Shown here in pieces: positions 20,276 through 28,614 of a DNA stretch of 64,000 nucleotides. Under the pieces are notes generated by a model. The model made no database searches. It worked only from the letters and a program-made list of their open reading frames with translations, and was not told the origin of the DNA. Every line of letters starts with the position of its first letter. The stretch's first letter is position 1. Origin of the DNA: Acidobacteriota bacterium (lineage in GTDB: Bacteria; Acidobacteriota; Blastocatellia; UBA7656); assembly GCA_038040445.1 (NCBI GenBank), contig JBBPIG010000017.1, positions 1 to 64,000 on the forward strand. Reading direction: 5' to 3'. The translations under genes and the position numbers were made by a program.

Positions 20276-20824
20276 CTACCCAACCGAAACGCCGGGTTCT
20301 TCCATGAACAGATACTTGCGCCACTCCCATCGCGACTCGGCAGCGTGGCGCATCGAAGCTCGCTCGATGCCGTAGGTCAAAGCAGCCGGATTTGCCAGCA
20401 GTGGCATCCGTGCTTCCTCGGGAGTGCGGTTGCCCTTGCGCTGGTTGCAAGCGAAGCAAGCGGCGCACAGATTGTCAGCCACGGTTCGTCCGCCGCGCGA
20501 ACGCGGCAGAATGTGGTCGATCGTCAGGTCGAAAGGACCGCCCTTCATTCCGCAATATTGGCAGCGGTACCGGTCGCGCGCGAGAATTCGCGAGCGTTTG
20601 GTGCTCGAGCGTCCCTGTCGTCCTCTCACGTCCACATACGCGATCAGTCGAATGACGCTCGGCGCAGGAAAGACGAAGTGCTGCGAGCGAAGCACACGGT
20701 CGCCGTCCAGCTCGACCACCTCAGCCGAGCCTTTCCAGACCAGGCGGACTGCGCGAGGAGTGTTGACGATGCCCAGCGCCTCGTAAGAGGCGTTTAGCAG
20801 CAGAACTCTTCGTGTTAGCAACAT
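20276..20824 (-). CDS. HNH endonuclease
   Basis: 182 residues from ATG 20824 (GGAAG upstream; an in-frame GTG lies 6 nt earlier). The HNH core is clear: RCQYCGMKGGPFDLTIDHILPRSRGG, then NLCAACFACNQRKGNRTPEEA, giving two C-x2-C zinc pairs and the DH catalytic dyad. The N-terminal part (VLLLNASYEALGIVNTPRAVRLV) is typical of the broad stand-alone HNH family found in many bacteria, whose substrate is generally unknown. It is the last gene of the tRNA/RNA-repair island on the minus strand, separated from the first tRNA by a heptamer hairpin; a link with the tRNAs is possible but not shown. Confidence 0.88.
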   Translation of the reverse strand: MLLTRRVLLLNASYEALGIVNTPRAVRLVWKGSAEVVELDGDRVLRSQHFVFPAPSVIRLIAYVDVRGRQGRSSTKRSRILARDRYRCQYCGMKGGPFDLTIDHILPRSRGGRTVADNLCAACFACNQRKGNRTPEEARMPLLANPAALTYGIERASMRHAAESRWEWRKYLFMEEPGVSVG

Positions 20825-20832
20825 AATCACTT

Positions 20833-20956: not shown

Positions 20957-21031
20957 TGGAGCCGGCGACCAGATTCGAACTGATGTCTACTGCTTACGAG
21001 ACAGTCGCTCTTCCCATTGAGCTACGCCGGC
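20957..21031 (-). tRNA. tRNA-Thr (CGT)
   Basis: Full cloverleaf with acceptor GCCGGCG/CGCCGGC, anticodon loop CTCGTAA, T loop TTCGAAT, encoded CCA (TCCA end). Last tRNA of the array in the transcription direction. Confidence 0.9.
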
Positions 21032-21091
21032 AAATCTGACCGACGACCGGAGACAACAGACCGTCGTCGGTCTTCGGTCGTCTGTCGTTAG

Positions 21092-21163
21092 TAGTCGGGG
21101 AAGGAATCGAACCTTCAACATCCGGTTTGTAGGACCGGCGCCATACCATTAGGCCACCCGACC
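21092..21163 (-). tRNA. tRNA-Val (TAC), with C33
   Basis: Acceptor GGTCGGG/CCCGACT (one G-T pair), D arm GCC/GGC, anticodon stem CCGGT/ACCGG, loop CCTACAA: position 33 is C instead of the near-universal U. No encoded CCA. The body resembles Gln-type tRNAs. Confidence 0.75.
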
Positions 21164-21172
21164 AGAAAGAGC

Positions 21173-21254
21173 CTGGGAGCGCTGGCATCCTTGACTGCTT
21201 CTGTTTCGTTACTCCTCGCGCCAAACGGGCAGACAAGGATGCCTGCGCTCCCAG
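21173..21254. repeat. long inverted repeat between tRNA genes
   Basis: Arms reading GGGAGCGC(T)GGCATCCTTG and the near-complementary CAAGGATGCCTGCGCTCCC flank about 40 nt. A related GCAGGCA/TGCCTGC hairpin occurs at about 4650-4675, before the MarR gene. MITE-like or REP-like element inserted in the spacer between tRNA-Val and tRNA-Gly. Confidence 0.6.
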
Positions 21255-21256
21255 AG

Positions 21257-21328
21257 AGCCTCGTGTGAGAGTCGAACTCACGCTATCGGTTTGGAAGACC
21301 GAGGTCATAGCCGCTAGACCAACGAGGC
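21257..21328 (-). tRNA. tRNA-Gly (TCC)
   Basis: Acceptor GCCTCGT/ACGAGGC, anticodon stem TCGGT/ACCGA with loop CTTCCAA, T arm GTGAG-TTCGACT-CTCAC. No encoded CCA. Confidence 0.9.
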
Positions 21329-21339
21329 TTGAGGTTCAT

Positions 21340-21452
21340 AGTTCAAGCTTCAGCTTGCCCACGCACTGTGCAGCCTGAAGGCGGAACTCTGAACTTGCAT
21401 ATGGTTTAGAGTTCAAGCTTCAGCTTGCCCGTGCCCGCAGCCTGAACTCTGA
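21340..21452. repeat. two direct copies of a short palindromic repeat
   Basis: AGTTCAAGCTTCAGCTTGCC occurs at about 21340-21359 and 21410-21429, each followed by a complementary CAGCCTGAA...GAACTCTGAAC tail. A third copy lies at 25862-25918 in the same tRNA array. Confidence 0.65.
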
Positions 21453-21462
21453 ACTTCTCGAG

Positions 21463-21535
21463 AGCTTCGTGCTGGATTCGAACCAGCGCTGCCGGTTTAC
21501 AGGACCGGAGTCATAACCAACTAGACCAACGAAGC
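21463..21535 (-). tRNA. tRNA-Thr (TGT), with C33
   Basis: Acceptor GCTTCGT/ACGAAGC, anticodon stem CCGGT/ACCGG, loop CCTGTAA with C at position 33. No encoded CCA. Confidence 0.8.
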
Positions 21536-21539
21536 GCAG

Positions 21540-21615
21540 TGACTCCGGCGAGACTCGAACTCGCGCCCTTCGCTTTCGGAGAGCGACGCTCTTGATCCAT
21601 CTGAGCTACGGAGCC
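21540..21615 (-). tRNA. tRNA-Arg (CCG)
   Basis: Acceptor GGCTCCG/CGGAGTC, D stem GCTC/GAGC, anticodon stem TCGCT/AGCGA with loop CTCCGAA. No encoded CCA. Only 4 nt from the preceding tRNA. Confidence 0.88.
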
Positions 21616-21626
21616 GTATTCAAAAG

Positions 21627-21699
21627 CGCGGACGGCAGGACTCGAACCCGCATAGACTTGTTCCGAAGACAAGCGCCTGATCCATTCGGCCACGTCCGC
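21627..21699 (-). tRNA. tRNA-Arg (TCG)
   Basis: Acceptor GCGGACG/CGTCCGC, anticodon stem CTTGT/ACAAG with loop CTTCGGA. No encoded CCA. Confidence 0.88.
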
Positions 21700-21702
21700 A
21701 AG

Positions 21703-21775
21703 CTGCGAAGCCAGGGGTCGAACCTGGAGTCTCTCGGGTCAAAGCCGAGCGTGTTGCCAGTTACACCACTTCGCA
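21703..21775 (-). tRNA. tRNA-Gln (TTG)
   Basis: Acceptor TGCGAAG/CTTCGCA, D arm GTGT/ACAC, anticodon stem CTCGG/CCGAG with loop CTTTGAC. The first 10 nt of the gene (GCGAAGTGGT) are repeated in tandem just upstream at 21776-21785. No encoded CCA. Confidence 0.88.
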
Positions 21776-21790
21776 CCACTTCGCAAATAT

Positions 21791-21866
21791 TGGTGGTTGG
21801 GGCCGGATTCGAACCGGCTTCCTCTGGAGCTTCACACCAGCGCTCTTCCTAATGAGCTTCCCAACC
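21791..21866 (-). tRNA. tRNA-Phe (GAA)
   Basis: Acceptor GGTTGGG/CCCAACC, loop GTGAAGC giving anticodon GAA, encoded ACCA. The anticodon stem has a T-T mismatch at its loop-proximal pair. Its first 19 nt recur exactly at 22767-22785, in the leader of the neighbouring RNA ligase gene. Confidence 0.82.
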
Positions 21867-21978
21867 CTGATTCGAGGATTGAAGATCGAGGATGGACGAT
21901 CGAGCATGGGTCTCGGGCAATCTTCCATCCTCCATCTTCTATCCTCGATCCTCAATCCTCTATCCTCCATCCTCAGTT
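21867..21978. repeat. heptamer inverted repeat (GGATCGA-like / TCCTCCA-like)
   Basis: GAGGATTGAAGATCGAGGATGGACGATCGAG-type heptads on the left are answered by about eight TCCTCNA heptads on the right, forming a long imperfect hairpin between tRNA-Phe and the RNA ligase stop codon. Confidence 0.7.
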
Positions 21979-22002
21979 TTCGGCATGGAACGGCAGCGCG
22001 GA

Positions 22003-22749
22003 TCACGGCCGCCAGTTCCACACTGCTTCATTGCCGGACATCTCCGGCAAGTAAACTCCATCCACCTTGTCGCGCCGGACGAACTTCGCCAGGAAGTCGA
22101 CCTCATTGCGACGCTCGCTTCCGCGGCCTTCGTTCGCCAACCGATTTCGCTCGACGCGCCACACAGCGCCTTCCACCTTATCCAGCGCGCCGTGAAACCC
22201 GAACTCACCGAGCCGCAGCAGGGCTCTCTCGATGCTCAGCGGCCCTCCCCGGTGGATCACCGCCGGCGTGATGAACCCGGCGGAATTGACCCGCGACACC
22301 AGTTCGTCGTAGATCGCGCGGCGGCTCCCAGTCATCAAGTCAAACGCGACGAATGGCTCGTGCCTCAACGAGTAGCGAGTGCCATGTGCTTGCATCAGCC
22401 ATTCACCGCACAGACGCTCGCCGTCTTGCAGCACGAGCATGAAGCGGTCTTGATTCGCGTAAACCCACTCTGCGAATCTCCAGTGCTGTTCGTAAGGCGA
22501 ACTGCCGGCCAGGTAGCCCGCCCGCGACAGCGGAAAAAGCATTCCATCAAGCCTCGCAACCGCGACGTTCGATCCATCCAGCTTCTCTTGAACGATGACC
22601 ACGTCGTGGCGGTCACGAGGCTTCTCAGTCGCGATGCGCTTCTGACCCTCGTGGCACTTGTGATCGCCGGGGCCCATTCGCGAGCCGGGCAGATGCGCGA
22701 TGTGACCGTAGCTCTTACCGCCAAGCGGCTTTCTGTTTTCTAAGTTCAT
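22003..22749 (-). CDS. RNA ligase family protein (T4 Rnl2-like nucleotidyltransferase)
   Basis: 248 residues. Covalent nucleotidyltransferase motifs are in order: motif I QEKLDGSN with the AMP-accepting Lys56, motif III FVAFDL, motif IV VEGAVWRV, motif V DFLAKFVR. Such enzymes adenylate the 5'-phosphate and seal 3'-OH/5'-PO4 RNA ends. A His/Cys-rich segment before motif I (MGPGDHKCHEGQKR) may bind metal (inference). GGAGGGAG lies 8 nt before ATG 22749. Directly upstream of that site is a 19-nt copy of the 5' end of tRNA-Phe. It lies inside the tRNA array, on the same strand and between two heptamer hairpins, so it is probably produced from the array transcript or a local promoter and acts on cleaved tRNAs (inference). 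Confidence 0.85.
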   Translation of the reverse strand: MNLENRKPLGGKSYGHIAHLPGSRMGPGDHKCHEGQKRIATEKPRDRHDVVIVQEKLDGSNVAVARLDGMLFPLSRAGYLAGSSPYEQHWRFAEWVYANQDRFMLVLQDGERLCGEWLMQAHGTRYSLRHEPFVAFDLMTGSRRAIYDELVSRVNSAGFITPAVIHRGGPLSIERALLRLGEFGFHGALDKVEGAVWRVERNRLANEGRGSERRNEVDFLAKFVRRDKVDGVYLPEMSGNEAVWNWRP

Positions 22750-22766
22750 CGCTGCGTCTCCCTCCC

Positions 22767-22785
22767 CCTAATGAGCTTCCCAACC
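22767..22785 (-). repeat. duplicated 5' end of tRNA-Phe (19 nt) in RNA ligase leader
   Basis: Exactly matches positions 1-19 of tRNA-Phe (21848-21866): acceptor 5' strand plus the first half of the D arm (GGTTGGGAAGCTCATTAGG). The flanks beyond the match are also similar, so the two form direct repeats bracketing the ligase gene. It sits 3-15 nt upstream of the ligase ribosome-binding site. Confidence 0.85.
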
Positions 22786-22965
22786 GTGATCGAGAATCGA
22801 GGATTAAGGATCGAGGATCGAGGATCGAGGATCGAGGATCGAGGATCGAGGATCGAGGATTGAAGATCGAGCACCGACCTCGGGCAATCATTCTATTTTC
22901 AATCTTTCTATCGTCTATCCTCAATCCTCGATCCTCCATCCTAATCCTCGATCCTCTATCCTCGA
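22786..22965. repeat. heptamer inverted repeat (GATCGAG)n / (CTCGATC-like)n
   Basis: At least seven perfect tandem GGATCGA heptads (about 22805-22860) are followed, after a spacer with TCTATTTTCAATC, by complementary TCCTCGA/TCCTCAA heptads to 22965. This is the longest heptamer hairpin in the window and separates the two RNA ligase genes. Confidence 0.85.
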
Positions 22966-23927
22966 GCCTTCTCCAGGTACCCGTTTGATACGACCTTCAA
23001 GCAGACACGGCCAATCTCAAGGTCGGTCCTCTCGCGCAAAGGTTTGACCACAATCCCTTCGCGAAAGTGTTGAGCTCCCGGAATCAAGCTCGGCCCTTCC
23101 GCAAGCGCAAACACCCGCTCCGCTTCGAACGGGATGTGAGTCGCGACCCGCGGCACCCAGGGCAACTCGGGCGCCAGATCGCAAGCCGCTTCAGCATCGA
23201 CCCACTCGGCGCGATCGAGAATGTCGAATAAGGCCACTCTTATCTCGCCGGGTCTCGTGCCGTACTTCAAACGCTGCACGCTGCCGTAGACCTCGCCGTA
23301 AACCGTCATCTCCGGATTCCGTTCACAGAAGCCGGCGATCTCCGGACACTGGCCGAGAGCCTTCCACCAGAGGTTGTTCTCGTCGTACTTCTTCCACGTG
23401 CCCCGGCTGCCGGCGCGCATGCGGCCGCCGGCGTAGCAGAACCGTGCGTTCGCCCCGTGAATCTTCTCGGTGACCCACACCGGCTCGCCCTCGACGAACA
23501 CGTGAGCGAATCGCCGTAGCGAGTCCACATCGTAGCTCGGATGGAATCCGGCGGGCGCGCCCTCTTCGTCGCCGCGAGCCATCAAAGGCAGCGGCGGCTC
23601 GTAGTGCGACACGCCGAGCAATTCCGCGACATCTTCGCCGAGTTGTGTGCCGTCGGGCGCCGGCATCAACAGACCCATCGACACAACCCCACGCAGCCGC
23701 TTGACTCGGATGCGTTCATGGCCGGCCAGAAAGGCGAACTCAGGCCGCGCGCTGTCTACAACCGAGTCCGGCGGTATGTAAGCGCCCAGCTCTATGCCGC
23801 GCCAATCCTCCGTGCGAACGCAGACGGTGTAGCCACCGAAGACCCGCACGACAGAGAGGCTATCCGCGTTAGGGTGCGGCTCGAGAATGACTCGAACCAC
23901 TTCAACTTTGTGTGTGCTCTTTTCCAT
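22956..23927 (-). CDS. RNA ligase, DRB0094 (Rnl5)-like, with N-terminal OB domain
   Basis: 323 residues from ATG 23927 (GGGGAT upstream); the upstream extension of the frame is tRNA sequence and was rejected. Residues 1-100 form an OB-like domain (VEVVRVILEPHPNADSLSVVRVFGG) with the HPNADSL phrase typical of tRNA-binding OB folds. The catalytic domain has motif I VTEKIHGANAR with Lys155 and the KxHG variant typical of Deinococcus DRB0094-type ligases, YGEVYGSVQ, motif III VALFDIL, motif IV REGIVVKP and motif V VCLKVVS. Characterised relatives seal nicked RNA with 3'-OH/5'-PO4 ends. The gene is embedded in the tRNA array next to a second, different ligase, pointing to tRNA repair (inference). 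Confidence 0.88.
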   Translation of the reverse strand: MEKSTHKVEVVRVILEPHPNADSLSVVRVFGGYTVCVRTEDWRGIELGAYIPPDSVVDSARPEFAFLAGHERIRVKRLRGVVSMGLLMPAPDGTQLGEDVAELLGVSHYEPPLPLMARGDEEGAPAGFHPSYDVDSLRRFAHVFVEGEPVWVTEKIHGANARFCYAGGRMRAGSRGTWKKYDENNLWWKALGQCPEIAGFCERNPEMTVYGEVYGSVQRLKYGTRPGEIRVALFDILDRAEWVDAEAACDLAPELPWVPRVATHIPFEAERVFALAEGPSLIPGAQHFREGIVVKPLRERTDLEIGRVCLKVVSNGYLEKARG

Positions 23928-23941
23928 GACTTCTATCCCCG

Positions 23942-24007
23942 TTCCGCGCTGCCTTCTCGGCTCTGCCTTCCGCCTTCTGCCTTCTGCCTTCTGACTTCTG
24001 ACTTCTG
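23942..24007. repeat. heptamer repeat (CTTCTGC)n
   Basis: Tandem CTTCTGC/CTTCCGC/CTTCTGA heptads between the Rnl5-like gene and tRNA-Ala; one-sided, without an opposing arm. The same unit forms the right arm of the hairpin at 9695-9772. Confidence 0.7.
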
Positions 24008-24081
24008 GTGGAGCGCTAGGGAATCGAACCCTACTCACCTTGCTTGCAAGGCAAAGTCGCCACCTTGGTACATGGCGCCCC
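24006..24081 (-). tRNA. tRNA-Ala (TGC), atypical D arm
   Basis: Acceptor GGGGCGC/GCGCTCC, anticodon stem TTTGC/GCAAG with loop CTTGCAA, encoded ACCA. The D arm pairs only as CCA/TGG with the two linker bases 8-9 apparently consumed, so folding is unusual. Confidence 0.8.
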
Positions 24082-24090
24082 ATTTTCAAG

Positions 24091-24163
24091 TCGGGGTCCC
24101 GAGAGTCGAACTCGGACTCTCCTGCTCCCAAGGCAGGCGGCTTTCCATCAAGCCTTGACCCCG
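24091..24163 (-). tRNA. tRNA-Pro (TGG)
   Basis: Acceptor CGGGGTC/GACCCCG, anticodon stem CCTGC/GCAGG with loop CTTGGGA. No encoded CCA. Confidence 0.9.
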
Positions 24164-24168
24164 AAAAG

Positions 24169-24240
24169 CTCGGGCGGGAGGACTCGAACCTCCGCAAGTC
24201 CGGTTAACAGCCGGATGCTCTGCCTCTGAGCTACGCCCGA
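24169..24240 (-). tRNA. tRNA-Asn (GTT)
   Basis: Acceptor TCGGGCG/CGCCCGA, anticodon stem TCCGG/CCGGA with loop CTGTTAA, discriminator G. No encoded CCA. Only 5 nt from tRNA-Pro. Confidence 0.9.
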
Positions 24241-24246
24241 ATGAAC

Positions 24247-24462
24247 TCAAACGTCTACGTCCGACGGATTGGCGACATATCGCACTGTTCCGTGCGTCTC
24301 CTCGCTGATCCGCGACTCGCTTTCGGCAATCGCTCCATCGCACGACTCGTCCAACGAATCCCCGAACTCGGTTCGGCGTTCGTGTCGCGGATGGATCGCC
24401 TCGACATCCCACCGCCGGTCAGTCAGCAAGTCCACTATTCTGAATCGCGCCCCTTGTTTCAT
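24247..24462 (-). CDS. small unknown protein encoded inside the tRNA array
   Basis: 71 residues, starting ATG 24462 with an excellent GAGGTGAG ribosome-binding site immediately upstream. The product is charged: MKQGARFRIVDLLTDRRWDV at the start, a Glu/Asp/Ser-rich middle (FGDSLDESCDGAIAESESR) and a DVDV end. It stops 6 bp before tRNA-Asn. No known domain recognised. Its place between tRNA genes with a strong translation start suggests a real component of the island. It could be a small regulator or antitoxin-like protein, but nothing in the sequence proves this. Confidence 0.5.
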   Translation of the reverse strand: MKQGARFRIVDLLTDRRWDVEAIHPRHERRTEFGDSLDESCDGAIAESESRISEETHGTVRYVANPSDVDV

Positions 24463-24475
24463 CGCTCACCTCAAA

Positions 24476-24548
24476 TGGCTCGAGGCGGAATCGAACCGCC
24501 GGCGACCGACTTATGAGATCGGCGCTCTGCCGTCTGAGCTATCGAGCC
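24476..24548 (-). tRNA. tRNA-Met elongator or Ile2 (CAT)
   Basis: Acceptor GGCTCGA/TCGAGCC, D stem GCTC/GAGC, anticodon stem CCGAT/GTCGG with loop CTCATAA. It lacks initiator features. CAT could also be an Ile tRNA modified to lysidine; not distinguishable here. No encoded CCA. Confidence 0.85.
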
Positions 24549-24622
24549 GCAGAACACGACCGATGACCGATGACCAGCGACAGTAGCGGTCCCCCGTCTC
24601 CGGTCTCCCGTCGTCCCTTCAG

Positions 24623-24695
24623 AGCCCGCGGCGGGAATTGAACTCGCCACCTCTCGATTACCGATCGAGTGCTCCGCCATCTGAGCTTCGCGGGC
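24623..24695 (-). tRNA. tRNA-Thr (GGT), with C33
   Basis: Acceptor GCCCGCG/CGCGGGC, anticodon stem CTCGA/TCGAG, loop TCGGTAA with C at 33. The T stem has an A-C mismatch and the T loop is TTCAATT. No encoded CCA. Confidence 0.75.
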
Positions 24696-24699
24696 AAAA

Positions 24700-24783
24700 C
24701 TGATTTCGAATTGCGAATTTCGGATTTCGAATCTCTGGATTGGCCAAACCAATTCGCAATTCGAAATTCGCAATTACCAATCT
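24700..24783. repeat. AT-rich heptamer inverted repeat (GAATTGC-like)
   Basis: Degenerate heptads (GAATTGC, GAATTTC, GGATTTC, GAATCTC) then, after TTGGCCAAACC, the complementary series (AATTCGC, AATTCGA, AATTCGC). A potential hairpin between tRNA-Thr(GGT) and tRNA-Lys(TTT). Confidence 0.65.
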
Positions 24784-24788
24784 CCTCA

Positions 24789-24861
24789 TGGGCCGCGTGG
24801 GAGTCGAACCCACTACCTCTCGATTAAAAGTCGAGAACTCATCCTGATGAGCTTCCGGCCC
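24789..24861 (-). tRNA. tRNA-Lys (TTT)
   Basis: Acceptor GGGCCGG/GCGGCCC (one G-G mismatch at 7:66), anticodon stem CTCGA/TCGAG with loop CTTTTAA. No encoded CCA. Confidence 0.85.
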
Positions 24862-24864
24862 AAG

Positions 24865-24953
24865 TAGTCCCGCCGAGATTCGAACTCGGATCACGCGGTA
24901 ATCTGCCGCTTGCAGGGTATAAGGCTGCCGCTCTACCGTTGAGCTACGGGACT
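24865..24953 (-). tRNA. tRNA with Ile anticodon TAT and a long (class II) variable arm
   Basis: 89 nt. Acceptor AGTCCCG/CGGGACT, D stem GCTC/GAGC, anticodon stem GCAGC/CCTGC (one C-C mismatch) with loop CTTATAC. A 22-nt variable region contains its own stem GCGG/CCGC. T arm CCGAG-TTCGAAT-CTCGG. Long variable arms belong to Leu, Ser and Tyr tRNAs, so an Ile anticodon on this body is abnormal. Charging identity unknown. Confidence 0.65.
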
Positions 24954-24968
24954 GTTCTAGAACAACTG

Positions 24969-25042
24969 ATGCGCCCGTAGGGACTCGAACCCTCCTCCCA
25001 GGTTTAAGAAACCTGTGCTTCGCCATCAAAGCTTCGAGCGCA
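24969..25042 (-). tRNA. tRNA-Lys (CTT)
   Basis: Acceptor TGCGCTC/GGGCGCA, anticodon stem CAGGT/ACCTG with loop TTCTTAA. No encoded CCA. Confidence 0.85.
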
Positions 25043-25045
25043 CAG

Positions 25046-25120
25046 CGCTGGCGGCAGGATTCGAACCCGCGTTGACTGCTTTAGAAGAGCAGCGCCTTCG
25101 TTCCGCTCGGCCACGCCAGC
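25046..25120 (-). tRNA. tRNA-Arg (TCT)
   Basis: Acceptor GCTGGCG/CGCCAGC, anticodon stem CTGCT/AGCAG with loop CTTCTAA. No encoded CCA; 3 nt from tRNA-Lys(CTT). Confidence 0.9.
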
Positions 25121-25132
25121 ATTCATAAATCA

Positions 25133-25207
25133 GCGGGATCGACGAGATTCGAACTCGCGTAGTCTTGATCGACAATCAAGTGCCTGTGCCTCTCGGCCAC
25201 GACCCCG
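25133..25207 (-). tRNA. tRNA-Asp (GTC)
   Basis: Acceptor CGGGGTC/GATCCCG, anticodon stem CTTGA/TCAAG with loop TTGTCGA. The D arm GTGGCC/GGC is of the Arg/Leu-like type rather than a usual Asp body. No encoded CCA. Confidence 0.82.
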
Positions 25208-25211
25208 ATGG

Positions 25212-25285
25212 CGGCGATGGCGAGACTCGAACTCGCTAGGACTGAGTTGAGAACCCAGGCGCTCGACCGCTTTGCATTCATCGCC
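25212..25285 (-). tRNA. tRNA-Glu (CTC)
   Basis: Acceptor GGCGATG/CATCGCC, anticodon stem CTGGG/CTCAG with loop TTCTCAA. Shares its unusual D region (AATGCAAAGCGGTCGAGCG) with tRNA-Glu(TTC) at 25692, suggesting duplication within the array. No encoded CCA. Confidence 0.82.
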
Positions 25286-25290
25286 GTGTA

Positions 25291-25363
25291 TACCGCCTCC
25301 AGGAGTTGAACCTGGACTCTTCCGCTAATCGGGCGGACGTGTTGCCAGTTACACCAAGGCGGC
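25291..25363 (-). tRNA. tRNA-Ile (GAT), with C33
   Basis: Acceptor GCCGCCT/AGGCGGT, D arm GTGTAACTGGCAACAC shared with the Gln-type tRNAs here, anticodon stem TCCGC/GCGGA, loop CCGATTA with C at 33. No encoded CCA. Confidence 0.75.
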
Positions 25364-25375
25364 GTGCTTCTCTCG

Positions 25376-25457
25376 GACGTAGCGCACGCCGCCTGGCTTG
25401 CGTTTCTTGGTTTTGATCGCGGCCCTCCGGACGCAAGCCGGCGGCGTGCGCTACGTC
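25376..25457. repeat. long inverted repeat between tRNA-Ile and tRNA-Gln
   Basis: Arms starting GACGTAGCGCACGCCGCC and ending in its complement GGCGGCGTGCGCTACGTC flank about 30 nt; each arm is about 26 nt with one or two mismatches. MITE-like hairpin inside the array. Confidence 0.7.
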
Positions 25458-25472
25458 TGTGCTTCAAAGAAC

Positions 25473-25548
25473 TGGCTCCGGGAGAAGGCCTCGAACCTTC
25501 ACTCTCCGATTTCAGAGACCGGCGTGTTGCCACTTACACCATCCCGGA
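25473..25548 (-). tRNA. tRNA-Gln (CTG)
   Basis: Acceptor TCCGGGA/TCCCGGA, D arm GTGT/ACAC, anticodon stem CCGGT/ATCGG with loop CTCTGAA, encoded GCCA. Confidence 0.9.
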
Positions 25549-25612
25549 ACTAATAGCCTTGCATCATTCGTCCTATCGGTTCCTATTTCATCCTATGTCC
25601 CGCGAAACCAAG

Positions 25613-25684
25613 GGTGACTGGAGAGAGTCGAACTCTCTAAAAGCGGTTCCACAGACCGCCCCCGAGCCGTTTGGGTTCAGCCAC
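25613..25684 (-). tRNA. tRNA-His (GTG)
   Basis: Acceptor GTGGCTG/CAGTCAC, discriminator C73 with a G encoded at -1 (25685), both classic His determinants. Anticodon stem GCGGT/ACCGC with loop CTGTGGA. No encoded CCA. The D arm is C/G-rich and irregular. Confidence 0.85.
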
Positions 25685-25691
25685 CACTAAG

Positions 25692-25765
25692 CAGGGATGG
25701 AGAGACTTGAACTCTCTAAGCCAGGCTTGAAAAACCTGTCGCTCGACCGCTTTGCATTCATCCCC
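25692..25765 (-). tRNA. tRNA-Glu (TTC)
   Basis: Acceptor GGGGATG/CATCCCT, anticodon stem CAGGT/GCCTG with loop TTTTCAA, same D region as tRNA-Glu(CTC). No encoded CCA. Confidence 0.83.
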
Positions 25766-25779
25766 GTTTCAAACATCGA

Positions 25780-25853
25780 TGCGGGAGAGGAGAATCGAAC
25801 TCCTAAGACGCTCGGTTTAAGCGAGCGATGTCTGCCTGTTGCATCACTCCCGC
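25780..25853 (-). tRNA. tRNA with Leu anticodon TAA on a class I body
   Basis: 74 nt: acceptor GCGGGAG/CTCCCGC, weak 3-bp D stem, anticodon stem GCTCG/CGAGC with loop CTTAAAC, only 5 nt of variable loop (GTCTT). Bacterial tRNA-Leu normally has a long variable arm. No encoded CCA. Confidence 0.7.
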
Positions 25854-25861
25854 GAAAGTTC

Positions 25862-25918
25862 TGAGTTCAAGCTTCAGCTTGCCTTCTGCGCCAGTAACCT
25901 GAAGGTTGAACTCTAAAC
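25862..25918. repeat. third copy of the GTTCAAGCTTCAGCTTGCC repeat
   Basis: Same palindromic element as at 21340-21452, lying between tRNA-Leu(TAA) and the initiator-like tRNA. Confidence 0.6.
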
Positions 25919-25920
25919 GC

Positions 25921-25999
25921 TGGTAGCGGAGTCCGGAGTCTCACCGGATGATTTGCTGGTTATGAGCCAGCCGAGCCTGGTTCCTGCTCCATCTCCGCA
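25921..25999 (-). tRNA. initiator-like tRNA-Met (CAT), divergent T loop
   Basis: Initiator features: unpaired T1-T72 at the acceptor end, TGGAGCAG D-region phrase, loop CTCATAA and an encoded ACCA. Deviations: the anticodon stem is GCTGG/CCAGC, so only two of the three conserved G-C pairs remain. The T loop reads TGAGACT instead of TTCAAAT, and three bases separate the acceptor and D stems. Confidence 0.75.
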
Positions 26000-26004
26000 T
26001 CAAG

Positions 26005-26078
26005 AGCACGCGGTGAGATTCGAACTCACGATGACCGGTTTTGCAGACCGGCGCCTTAACCAACTTGGCTACGCGTGC
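26005..26078 (-). tRNA. tRNA-Cys (GCA)
   Basis: Acceptor GCACGCG/CGCGTGC, D arm GCC/GGC, anticodon stem CCGGT/ACCGG with loop CTGCAAA, discriminator T as expected for Cys. No encoded CCA. Confidence 0.9.
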
Positions 26079-26087
26079 GACAACGTT

Positions 26088-26161
26088 TGGAGCTTCGTGC
26101 GGGAATCGAACCCGCGCTTTCGCCATGGCAAGGCGACGTCATTCCACTAGACCAACGAAGC
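26088..26161 (-). tRNA. tRNA-Gly (GCC)
   Basis: Acceptor GCTTCGT/ACGAAGC, anticodon stem TCGCC/GGCGA with loop TTGCCAT, encoded TCCA. Acceptor stem identical to tRNA-Thr(TGT) at 21463. Confidence 0.9.
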
Positions 26162-26212
26162 GGCTTCCGAATCTCAAATCTGAAATCTGGAATCCGAAAC
26201 CTGCAATTGATG

Positions 26213-26289
26213 TGGTGCTGGCGGAAGGATTCGAACCTTCACCAAACTGGGTTTGAGCCAGTCACCTCTACCGATTGGGTCACGCCAGC
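26213..26289 (-). tRNA. tRNA with Leu anticodon CAA on a class I body
   Basis: Acceptor GCTGGCG/CGCCAGC, D stem ACC/GGT, anticodon stem ACTGG/CCAGT with loop CTCAAAC, 5-nt variable loop (TTGGT), encoded ACCA. The long variable arm of tRNA-Leu is missing. Confidence 0.75.
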
Positions 26290-26323
26290 ACACAATCACG
26301 CATCACGTTTCACGCATCAATGT

Positions 26324-26401
26324 TGGTACCGGCGGAGGGATTCGAACCCTCATCAACTGGTTTCTAAGACCAGTGCCTCTGCCAGGTTGGGCCACGCCGG
26401 T
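26324..26401 (-). tRNA. tRNA with Leu anticodon TAG on a class I body
   Basis: Acceptor ACCGGCG/CGCCGGT, D stem GCC/GGC, anticodon stem CTGGT/ACCAG with loop CTTAGAA, 5-nt variable loop (TTGAT), encoded ACCA. Confidence 0.75.
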
Positions 26402-26404
26402 ACA

Positions 26405-26442
26405 TTCGAGGACCGCCGTGTTGCCAGTTACACCATGCTCCC
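26405..26442 (-). pseudogene. 5' half of a tRNA (38 nt), abutting tRNA-Leu(TAG)
   Basis: Contains acceptor 5' strand GGGAGCA, D arm GTGTAACTGGCAACAC (identical to Gln/Ile relatives here), 5' anticodon stem GCGGT and a full loop CCTCGAA, then stops at position 38. No 3' half follows; after 3 nt the next tRNA begins. Confidence 0.75.
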
Positions 26443-26451
26443 GAGTAGCAC

Positions 26452-26535
26452 AGACTTCAGTCTGTAGTGGCGCAGGACTTCAGTCTGTGGACAGTCCGCC
26501 CGCTAACGAGATTCCACAGACTGAAGTCTGCGCCA
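26452..26535. repeat. ACTTCAGTCTGT direct and inverted repeats
   Basis: Two direct copies of GACTTCAGTCTGT and one inverted copy (ACAGACTGAAGTC) with complementary GTGGCGCAG/CTGCGCCAC flanks fill the spacer between the half-tRNA and tRNA-Tyr. Confidence 0.75.
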
Positions 26536-26539
26536 CGTA

Positions 26540-26623
26540 TGCTGAGCGAAGGAATCGAACCTCCAATGACCGCTCGGGTCGCCTGATCTACAGTCAGGTG
26601 CAATGCCACTCTGCCAGCTCAGC
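26540..26623 (-). tRNA. tRNA-Tyr (GTA)
   Basis: 84 nt with a long variable arm as expected for Tyr; acceptor GCTGAGC/GCTCAGC, anticodon stem CCTGA/TCAGG with loop CTGTAGA, discriminator A. First tRNA of the array in transcription order. No encoded CCA. Confidence 0.9.
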
Positions 26624-27105: not shown

Positions 27106-28614
27106 TTAATGGTGCTTGCTCGACTGTCGGTTCGAGCGCTTGCCCCGTCTTCCGCCTGCGCCCTCAGTTCCCTTCAACGAAGCAAGCGGCCACAAGCTGT
27201 ACTCAATCCTCGCGAGCCCAGCGCCGACAACCGCGCCGACTACTTCTGCCGACGGCTTGTAGCACAGCGCTGATTCATCAATCGGCACGTGGCCATCGAC
27301 GTTCACAAGGATTCCCGCAGCCGCGTACTCATCATCAATCTTGCGCTGATTCAAAGTTCTCCCAGCTTCGCCTCTCGACATTCGCCGGCCTGCGCCGTGG
27401 TTCACTGAGTAAGCGCTTCGCACCGCGCCCGCCTCGGGCCGCAGCACGTAGCTCCAGTCTTTGTTCGAGCCGGGAATCAACACCGGATGACCCGTGTGCT
27501 CCCACATCGTTCCTTCAAGCGCCGGATGCCCCGCGGGAAAAGCTCGAGTCGCGCCCTTGCGATGCACCCACACCTCGCCGAACTCCGGGTGCCATTCCTT
27601 CTGGACGAGATTGTGAGAAATTTCATAGATCAACTCCATCTCGCCGCCAAACACCTTCTCGAACGCTTCGGCTACCTGTTCGAAGATGATCAAGCGGTTG
27701 ATGATCGCAAAGTTGCCGCCCGCCGCCACCGCGTTCAAGTAGCTGCGATAGTGCTCCGACTCCGGTGTGAAGTAGCCAAGATCAAGATCCGTGATGACCT
27801 CAGGCTTCTCCGCGCGCGCCAAGTCGAAGTAGTTAGTCGCCAGTCCGTGTCCCCAGCCTCGCGAGCCGGTGTGCGCTTGCACGAACAGCGTGCCCGTCTC
27901 TTCGCAACGCTGCAGCTCGATGAAGTGGTTGCCACCACCGAGCGAGCCAAGCTGCGAGAACCCACGCTCGGGCCTGCCTCGGGCACCAATCGGCGGCTGC
28001 CAGTCATCATCAACCGGCAGACGGTGACGTTCAGCACGTGAGCGATCGAACGTTGCGCCGTACTTTTCGACGTAGCACTCGGCGCCTCCGTGAACAAGAT
28101 TATCGAACTCATGTCGATCAACAGTGCCAAGCTTGAAGCTCTTTCCGCCGGCGCCGAGGTCAACACGCTTCATCACCTCGCGATTGAACTCGAGTCTTCG
28201 CTCAGGCGTGGCGGCATCGACCGGAACGTCACTCTTTGCGCTGACCATCCCGCAGCCGATGTCGTAGCCTACGGGCCCCATCGCGATCGCCCCGTCCCGC
28301 GAGTCCGTCAAGATCACACAGCCCACGGGCACGCCGTAACCGTAGTGAACGTCGGGCGTGATGACCACGAGCTTCACGCCAGGGAACCGAGTCGCGTTGA
28401 TGATCTGGCGATAGAGAATGTCTTCGGCGTCTGCCAGAAGTCGCGGCGTAAGAAACATTCTCACCGGCACATCGCGAGTGTCCTCAGTGCGCAGTTCGTA
28501 GTAACCCTCGCCATTCCACCGAGCGAGAAGTTTCCAGTTGTGCGCATTTGCGAGGTCATTGCTTTCTTTCCTAGCCCCTCGCATAACCAGCCCGTTCTCT
28601 AGCGTGCCTCTCAT
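27106..28614 (-). CDS. rtcB: RtcB-type RNA-splicing ligase
   Basis: 502 residues. RtcB signatures are all present: VITPDVHYGYGVPVGCV, GYDIGCGM with the metal-binding Cys, SLGGGNHFIE, VQAHTGSRGWGH, YEISHN and SVNHGAGRRMSR containing the guanylated histidine. RtcB joins 2',3'-cyclic phosphate or 3'-phosphate ends to 5'-OH ends using GTP and Mn2+, i.e. the ends left by most tRNA-cleaving toxins. The C-terminal tail (about 20 residues) is a low-complexity Gly/Arg/Lys segment. No RtcA, archease or Ro60 gene is adjacent. It lies directly upstream of the tRNA array on the same strand, separated by a terminator-like hairpin. The start is uncertain: ATG 28614 or the Met ten residues in. Confidence 0.95.
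   Translation of the reverse strand: MRGTLENGLVMRGARKESNDLANAHNWKLLARWNGEGYYELRTEDTRDVPVRMFLTPRLLADAEDILYRQIINATRFPGVKLVVITPDVHYGYGVPVGCVILTDSRDGAIAMGPVGYDIGCGMVSAKSDVPVDAATPERRLEFNREVMKRVDLGAGGKSFKLGTVDRHEFDNLVHGGAECYVEKYGATFDRSRAERHRLPVDDDWQPPIGARGRPERGFSQLGSLGGGNHFIELQRCEETGTLFVQAHTGSRGWGHGLATNYFDLARAEKPEVITDLDLGYFTPESEHYRSYLNAVAAGGNFAIINRLIIFEQVAEAFEKVFGGEMELIYEISHNLVQKEWHPEFGEVWVHRKGATRAFPAGHPALEGTMWEHTGHPVLIPGSNKDWSYVLRPEAGAVRSAYSVNHGAGRRMSRGEAGRTLNQRKIDDEYAAAGILVNVDGHVPIDESALCYKPSAEVVGAVVGAGLARIEYSLWPLASLKGTEGAGGRRGKRSNRQSSKHH

What the first reader, a model, noticed from the sequence alone, without database searches (positions are those of the whole stretch)
25780..26401. Three tRNAs with Leu anticodons lack the long variable arm
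tRNAs with anticodons TAA (25780), CAA (26213) and TAG (26324) all fold with 5-nt variable loops. Bacterial tRNA-Leu is normally class II, and the variable arm and D-loop matter for discrimination. Three independent cases in one array argue against an error. These could be charged by another synthetase, or by LeuRS relying on other features, or be decoys for anticodon-specific nucleases.
Basis: partly seen in the sequence, partly recalled or inferred. Interest (0 to 1): 0.75.

Follow-up and report, generated by a model that had tools for sequence, protein, structure and literature searches.

The report
Leucine tRNAs without the long arm
Three leucine tRNAs in a bacterial tRNA array really have lost the long side arm that textbooks give to bacterial leucine tRNAs, but they keep the features the leucine-charging enzyme reads, and the same armless type occurs in viruses, plasmids and even as the only UUA-reading tRNA of other bacteria, so they are most likely ordinary working leucine tRNAs.

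Summary
In detail: the tRNAs at 25780 (TAA), 26213 (CAA) and 26324 (TAG) have 5-nt variable loops and no hidden arm, while the same genome keeps five long-armed Leu tRNAs and one LeuRS. 'Another synthetase' and 'decoy' are not supported. All three keep the leucine determinants known from E. coli (A73, A14, A15-U48, G18G19, A20a, 3-bp D stem); a signature built from these passed all three, none of the other 23 scorable array tRNAs and 4 of about 2,840 non-Leu tRNAs. E. coli LeuRS does not need the arm (PMC9976931). Short-arm Leu tRNAs recur in cyanobacterial plasmid arrays (14/14 Leu; Ser and Tyr all long) and phage arrays (8/43 Leu versus 0/60 Ser+Tyr), and are the sole Leu(UAA) gene in full tRNA sets of a same-order genome and of Microbacterium maritypicum, so they must work there. 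The locus, about 30 tRNAs with RtcB, two RNA ligases and an HNH gene, resembles the stress-induced Anabaena trn operon; that role is inferred. Side find: a long-armed tRNA-Ile(UAU) with a conserved CAGAUWA arm loop.

The parts
25780..25853 (-). tRNA-Leu(TAA), 5-nt variable loop
26213..26289 (-). tRNA-Leu(CAA), 5-nt variable loop, encoded CCA
26324..26401 (-). tRNA-Leu(TAG), 5-nt variable loop, encoded CCA
20957..26623 (-). tRNA array of about 30 genes in two blocks (20957-21866 and 24006-26623), about one gene per isoacceptor; no Ser or Trp found
24864..24953 (-). tRNA-Ile(TAT) with a long variable arm (22 nt), loop CAGATTA
26540..26623 (-). tRNA-Tyr(GTA), keeps its long variable arm; first gene of the array
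27106..28614 (-). RtcB RNA ligase
   Evidence: Pfam PF01139, E 4.8e-94
22956..24149 (-). ATP-dependent RNA ligase, DRB0094-like; the part conserved in relatives begins about residue 72 of this frame, so the true start is probably near 23930
   Evidence: Pfam PF09414; TIGR02306 139 bits, below its cut-off of 151
22003..22749 (-). second RNA ligase-fold protein
   Evidence: Pfam PF09414, E 9.9e-20
20276..20830 (-). HNH endonuclease at the end of the array; relatives lie in other loci with tRNA arrays
   Evidence: Pfam PF14279/PF01844

Best explanation
The three are genuine leucine tRNAs of a class-I-like (short variable loop) type. The host's single LeuRS charges them because it reads A73, the A15-U48 and D-loop/T-loop tertiary core and G18G19/A20a, not the anticodon or the long arm. 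They belong to a laterally acquired auxiliary tRNA set that lies on one strand with RtcB, two further RNA ligases and an HNH gene, and most likely serves as a spare set when housekeeping tRNAs are damaged or translation is stressed. Shown here: structure, intact determinants, single LeuRS, distribution, and use of the same type as sole UUA decoder elsewhere. Inferred: charging in this organism, expression, lateral acquisition and the stress role.
For: V = 5 nt and intact cloverleaf arms; Leu signature met by all three and by none of the other 23 scorable array tRNAs, 0.1% false positives overall; E. coli determinants from review PMC9976931; one LeuRS; sole Leu(UAA) gene is short in fully listed tRNA sets of G007 and Microbacterium maritypicum and by pattern in 3 further Actinomycetota and 3 further genomes of the phylum, with G000 as positive control; Leu-only arm loss in arrays; array tRNAs mostly 59-74% identical in the core to host isotypes; RtcB/ligase/HNH neighbours repeated in related arrays; Anabaena trn operon co-regulated with rtcB and HNH genes and induced by translation stress (PMC10272220).
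Against: No aminoacylation or expression data. Without short Leu tRNAs in the reference set, a whole-sequence nearest-neighbour test calls only TAG as Leu (TAA as Gly, CAA as Arg; overall accuracy 0.82). The array lacks Ser and Trp, so it is not a complete spare set. Some array members look degenerate (Met 25921, His 25613).
Confidence: 0.78

Rival explanations
1. They carry Leu anticodons but are charged with another amino acid by another synthetase, a local recoding device.
For: Whole-sequence neighbours of TAA and CAA are mixed when short Leu tRNAs are removed from the reference.
Against: A73, A15-U48, GG.AGA and the 3-bp D stem are all kept; the same type must decode UUA as Leu in other bacteria; no unusual synthetase gene was recognised near the array.
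Confidence: 0.05
2. Decoys or sacrificial targets for anticodon nucleases or tRNA toxins; the lost arm hides them from, or presents them to, such enzymes.
For: RNA ligases flank the array; a toxin that reads the variable loop is known for tRNASer (MenT3, PMC11541572).
Against: All isotypes are present, not Leu only; anticodon loops are mostly the same as or close to the host's; short-arm Leu is also housekeeping elsewhere.
Confidence: 0.1
3. Decaying pseudo-tRNAs that lost the arm by neutral deletion and no longer work.
For: Some neighbours are degenerate (Met 25921-25999 with an odd T loop; weak His).
Against: Stems intact, encoded CCA in two, tertiary core conserved, and the same short form kept across phyla and in the related array of G006.
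Confidence: 0.07

Closest known systems
Anabaena sp. PCC 7120 trn operon / TrcR regulon (PMC10272220) and related Nostocales plasmid arrays
   Same: About 26 diverse tRNA genes in one run, an HNH gene next to the related plasmid arrays, rtcB and HNH genes in the same regulon; short-arm Leu tRNAs in the Nostocales plasmid arrays read here.
   Different: On plasmids there; here near nuoN/nuoM, probably chromosomal; here RtcB and two RNA ligases are at the locus itself; regulation here unknown. The Anabaena array itself could not be read.
Horizontally acquired tRNA clusters of Mycobacterium mucogenicum and relatives (PMC6582537)
   Same: Cluster tRNALeu(TAG) described in one sentence as having a short variable loop unlike the housekeeping one; HNH gene in the cluster; tRNA-Ile(TAT) present.
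   Different: 11-14 tRNAs; no RNA ligases mentioned in the passages read; the trait was not followed up there.
Phage tRNA arrays (Gordonia phage Phendrix, Vibrio phage KVP40, many IMG/VR contigs)
   Same: Short-arm Leu tRNAs with the same D arm; Phendrix Leu(TAG) 87.5% identical over 63 nt.
   Different: In viral genomes; in an unselected viral sample most Leu tRNAs (35/43) keep the long arm.
Short-armed housekeeping tRNALeu(UAA) of Actinomycetota
   Same: Same D arm (CCCAA..GGNAGAGG) as the window's CAA and TAG, 5-6 nt variable loop.
   Different: Single housekeeping genes, not arrays.
Mammalian mitochondrial tRNALeu(UUR)
   Same: Leucylated without a long arm, specified by A73 and A14 (PMC9976931).
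   Different: Organellar synthetase. The same review gives animal mitochondria as the only exception to long-armed tRNALeu/tRNASer; the bacteria found here are a further exception for Leu.

Membership tests
Standard class II bacterial tRNALeu | Variable region of 10 or more nt forming an arm | tested here: not met
   5 nt in all three
LeuRS substrate (E. coli-type leucine identity) | A73, A14, A15-U48, G18G19, A20a, 3-bp D stem | tested here: met
   determinants from PMC9976931
LeuRS substrate (E. coli-type leucine identity) | C2-G71 (blocks SerRS in E. coli) | tested here: met
   second acceptor pair C-G in all three; not specific, other array tRNAs share it
LeuRS substrate (E. coli-type leucine identity) | Leucylated in vitro or in vivo | not testable with these tools
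   needs an aminoacylation assay; indirect support from sole UUA decoders elsewhere
trn-type tRNA array (Anabaena) | Twenty or more diverse single-copy tRNA genes on one strand | tested here: met
   27 by ARAGORN plus two Glu and a weak His
trn-type tRNA array (Anabaena) | HNH gene beside the array, related to those of Nostocales plasmids | tested here: met
   34-36% identity to the HNH genes in Kovacikia and Nostoc array loci
trn-type tRNA array (Anabaena) | Plasmid location | tested here: inconclusive
   150-kb contig carrying nuoN and nuoM, so probably chromosomal; the mycobacterial clusters show location varies
trn-type tRNA array (Anabaena) | Silent in normal growth and induced by translational stress via TrcR | not testable with these tools
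   no expression data; no TrcR homologue was sought

The most novel reading that the evidence does not exclude
Variable-arm length is an evolvable trait that mobile tRNA arrays and phages switch under selection in both directions: Leu tRNAs drop the arm because LeuRS ignores it, and tRNA-Ile(UAU) gains one with a conserved CAGAUWA loop, to escape arm-reading tRNA toxins or to recruit a dedicated factor. Short-arm tRNALeu in the housekeeping sets of Actinomycetota would then have spread from, or into, such arrays.
Probability: 0.15. Interest if true: 0.75.

Novelty: new variant of a known kind. Interest (0 to 1): 0.45.

Why it matters
[quoted passage not shown] The data show a short-arm bacterial tRNALeu that is the sole UUA decoder of some bacteria and recurs in phage, plasmid and chromosomal tRNA arrays. 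It is natural evidence for the in vitro result that bacterial LeuRS ignores the arm, while Ser and Tyr tRNAs almost always keep it. It also warns that arm length alone should not be used to call such tRNAs mis-annotated or recoded, and gives ready substrates for testing LeuRS recognition.

Tried and rejected
Whole-sequence nearest-neighbour isotype calling is noisy (leave-one-out accuracy 0.82) and ambiguous for two of three, so a determinant-based signature was used. A first, looser signature also let the long-armed Ile(UAU) through because of a shift in D-loop numbering; a D-stem criterion was then added, after seeing this, and removed it. The pattern scans select short Leu tRNAs by construction, so frequencies were taken from tRNAs not matching the pattern or from a viral sample chosen by tRNA-Asn. 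The 2021 NAR paper on the Anabaena array was not held and the Anabaena delta plasmid was not found under the accession tried; related Nostocales plasmids were used instead. The promoter and terminator scans were no better than shuffles.

Full report
Observation. The three genes exist at the stated places on the minus strand and have 5-nt variable regions, with all other arms present and end-to-end alignment to Rfam's tRNA model. Minimum-energy folds give acceptor, anticodon and T stems for TAA and TAG; the bare CAA sequence folds differently by energy alone, so its cloverleaf rests on ARAGORN and the covariance model. No long arm was missed.

Host background. The genome (6.7 Mb, 72 contigs) has its own Leu set TAG, CAA, TAA, CAG and GAG elsewhere, all with long arms, and Ser tRNAs with long arms. 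One LeuRS passes the NCBIfam cut-off; the weaker hits look like related class I synthetases (that reading is mine).

Are they leucine tRNAs? Published E. coli determinants are A73, the A15-U48 pair, G18G19 and A20a; anticodon and long arm are not crucial, and variants lacking the arm remain active (PMC9976931). The 13 short Leu tRNAs aligned first share A14, A15, G18, G19 and U48. In 65 further short Leu tRNAs not matching the search pattern, A73 was 65/65, A14 63/65 and A15-U48 61/65. A combined signature separates Leu from other isotypes almost completely: 125/161 long Leu, 65/112 short Leu outside the pattern, 4 of about 2,840 non-Leu tRNAs. The window's three pass and no other scorable window tRNA does. 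One criterion of the signature (unpaired 13-22) was added after a looser version let the Ile(UAU) tRNA through. The three also have C2-G71, described as a block against SerRS. Whole-sequence similarity is less clear: without short Leu tRNAs in the reference only TAG is called Leu; with them all three are.

Is the type functional anywhere? In four such genomes the only Leu(UAA) gene matching an anticodon-to-T-loop pattern that accepts both arm lengths was short. Four genomes of the window's phylum behaved the same, while the positive control G000 returned both its long and its short gene. Two genomes were then checked in full. G007, same order and 100% complete, has 46 tRNAs with exactly five Leu genes, of which TAA and TAG are short. 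Microbacterium maritypicum has 51 listed tRNAs with exactly five Leu genes, of which TAA is short. Since UUA is read by a UAA anticodon, these must be charged and working (established knowledge of decoding). A study of M. tuberculosis names tRNALeu-2, -3 and -5 as the long-looped ones (PMC11541572), which fits.

Rule of arm loss. In viral arrays chosen for a tRNA-Asn, Leu was 8 short/35 long, Ser 0/39 and Tyr 0/21 (Leu versus Ser, Fisher p 0.006). In arrays chosen for one short Leu, the Leu tRNAs outside the pattern were 57 short/32 long, Ser 2/84 and Tyr 2/30. In seven cyanobacterial plasmid arrays, Leu was 14/0, Ser 0/12 and Tyr 0/2. A Priestia plasmid array keeps long Leu tRNAs, and the same-family array of G005 is mixed. 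So arm loss is tolerated mainly for Leu, as expected if SerRS and bacterial TyrRS need the arm and LeuRS does not (the SerRS and TyrRS part is general knowledge, not tested here).

Locus. On one strand lie rtcB (27106-28614), the first array block, two RNA ligases (22956-24149, DRB0094-like; 22003-22749), the second block and an HNH gene (20276-20830). Relatives of the HNH gene lie in loci with cyanobacterial, viral and other arrays, and RtcB lies near several. Array tRNAs are mostly 59-74% identical in the core to host tRNAs of the same amino acid (Asn 83%) and usually closer to array tRNAs of other lineages (the latter comparison draws on many more sequences). With nuoN and nuoM on the same contig, the locus is probably chromosomal. 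The nearest studied system is the Anabaena trn operon, silent in normal growth, induced by translation inhibitors, and under the same repressor as rtcB and HNH genes (PMC10272220). The stress or spare-set role here is by analogy.

Side finding. The array's tRNA-Ile(UAU) has a long variable arm. The same is seen in same-family arrays and in an Elusimicrobia array. The loop core AGATWA was part of that pattern; in a sample taken by length instead, most also carry CAGATTA or CAGATAA. Nematode nev-tRNA-Ile(UAU) with a long arm is leucylated in vitro (PMC4300185), but the bacterial and viral ones lack the Leu D-arm signature (0/100).

Verdict. Real, unusual by textbook standards, but most likely functional leucine tRNAs of a recurrent short-arm type that, in the literature held here, was noted only in passing (PMC6582537).

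Noticed in passing
window 24864-24953; L059:7601-7696; L061:1042-1131; L210; viral L093, L166, L402, L415 and about 60 more viral loci: A tRNA-Ile(UAU) with a long (class II) variable arm whose 7-nt hairpin loop is CAGAU(U/A)A on stems of varied sequence, in phage contigs and bacterial arrays. No description of it in bacteria or phages was met in the few paper searches made; no mechanism proposed beyond a possible recognition or anti-recognition element.
   Followed up: partly
L185-L301 (mostly Actinomycetota), G007, G303, G165, G402: Housekeeping tRNALeu(UAA), and sometimes CAA or TAG, lacks the long arm in many Actinomycetota and in several genomes of the window's phylum, contrary to a recent review.
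   Followed up: partly
window 25921-25999: tRNA-Met(CAT) with an atypical T loop (no TTC motif) that Rfam's gathering scan does not report; possibly degenerate or an odd initiator-like tRNA.
   Followed up: no
window 26405-26445: A stretch that reads like a leftover part of a Gln-type tRNA next to Leu(TAG), suggesting gene loss within the array (seen by eye).
   Followed up: no
window 26456-26538: Repeated 'acttcagtctg' units in direct and inverted orientation between the Leu(TAG) and Tyr genes, looking like a small mobile palindromic repeat (seen by eye).
   Followed up: no
window 22003-24149: Two adjacent RNA_ligase (PF09414) genes split the array; the larger has 66-83% identical relatives in G005, G006 and G019, and in G019 without ARAGORN tRNAs nearby.
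   Followed up: partly
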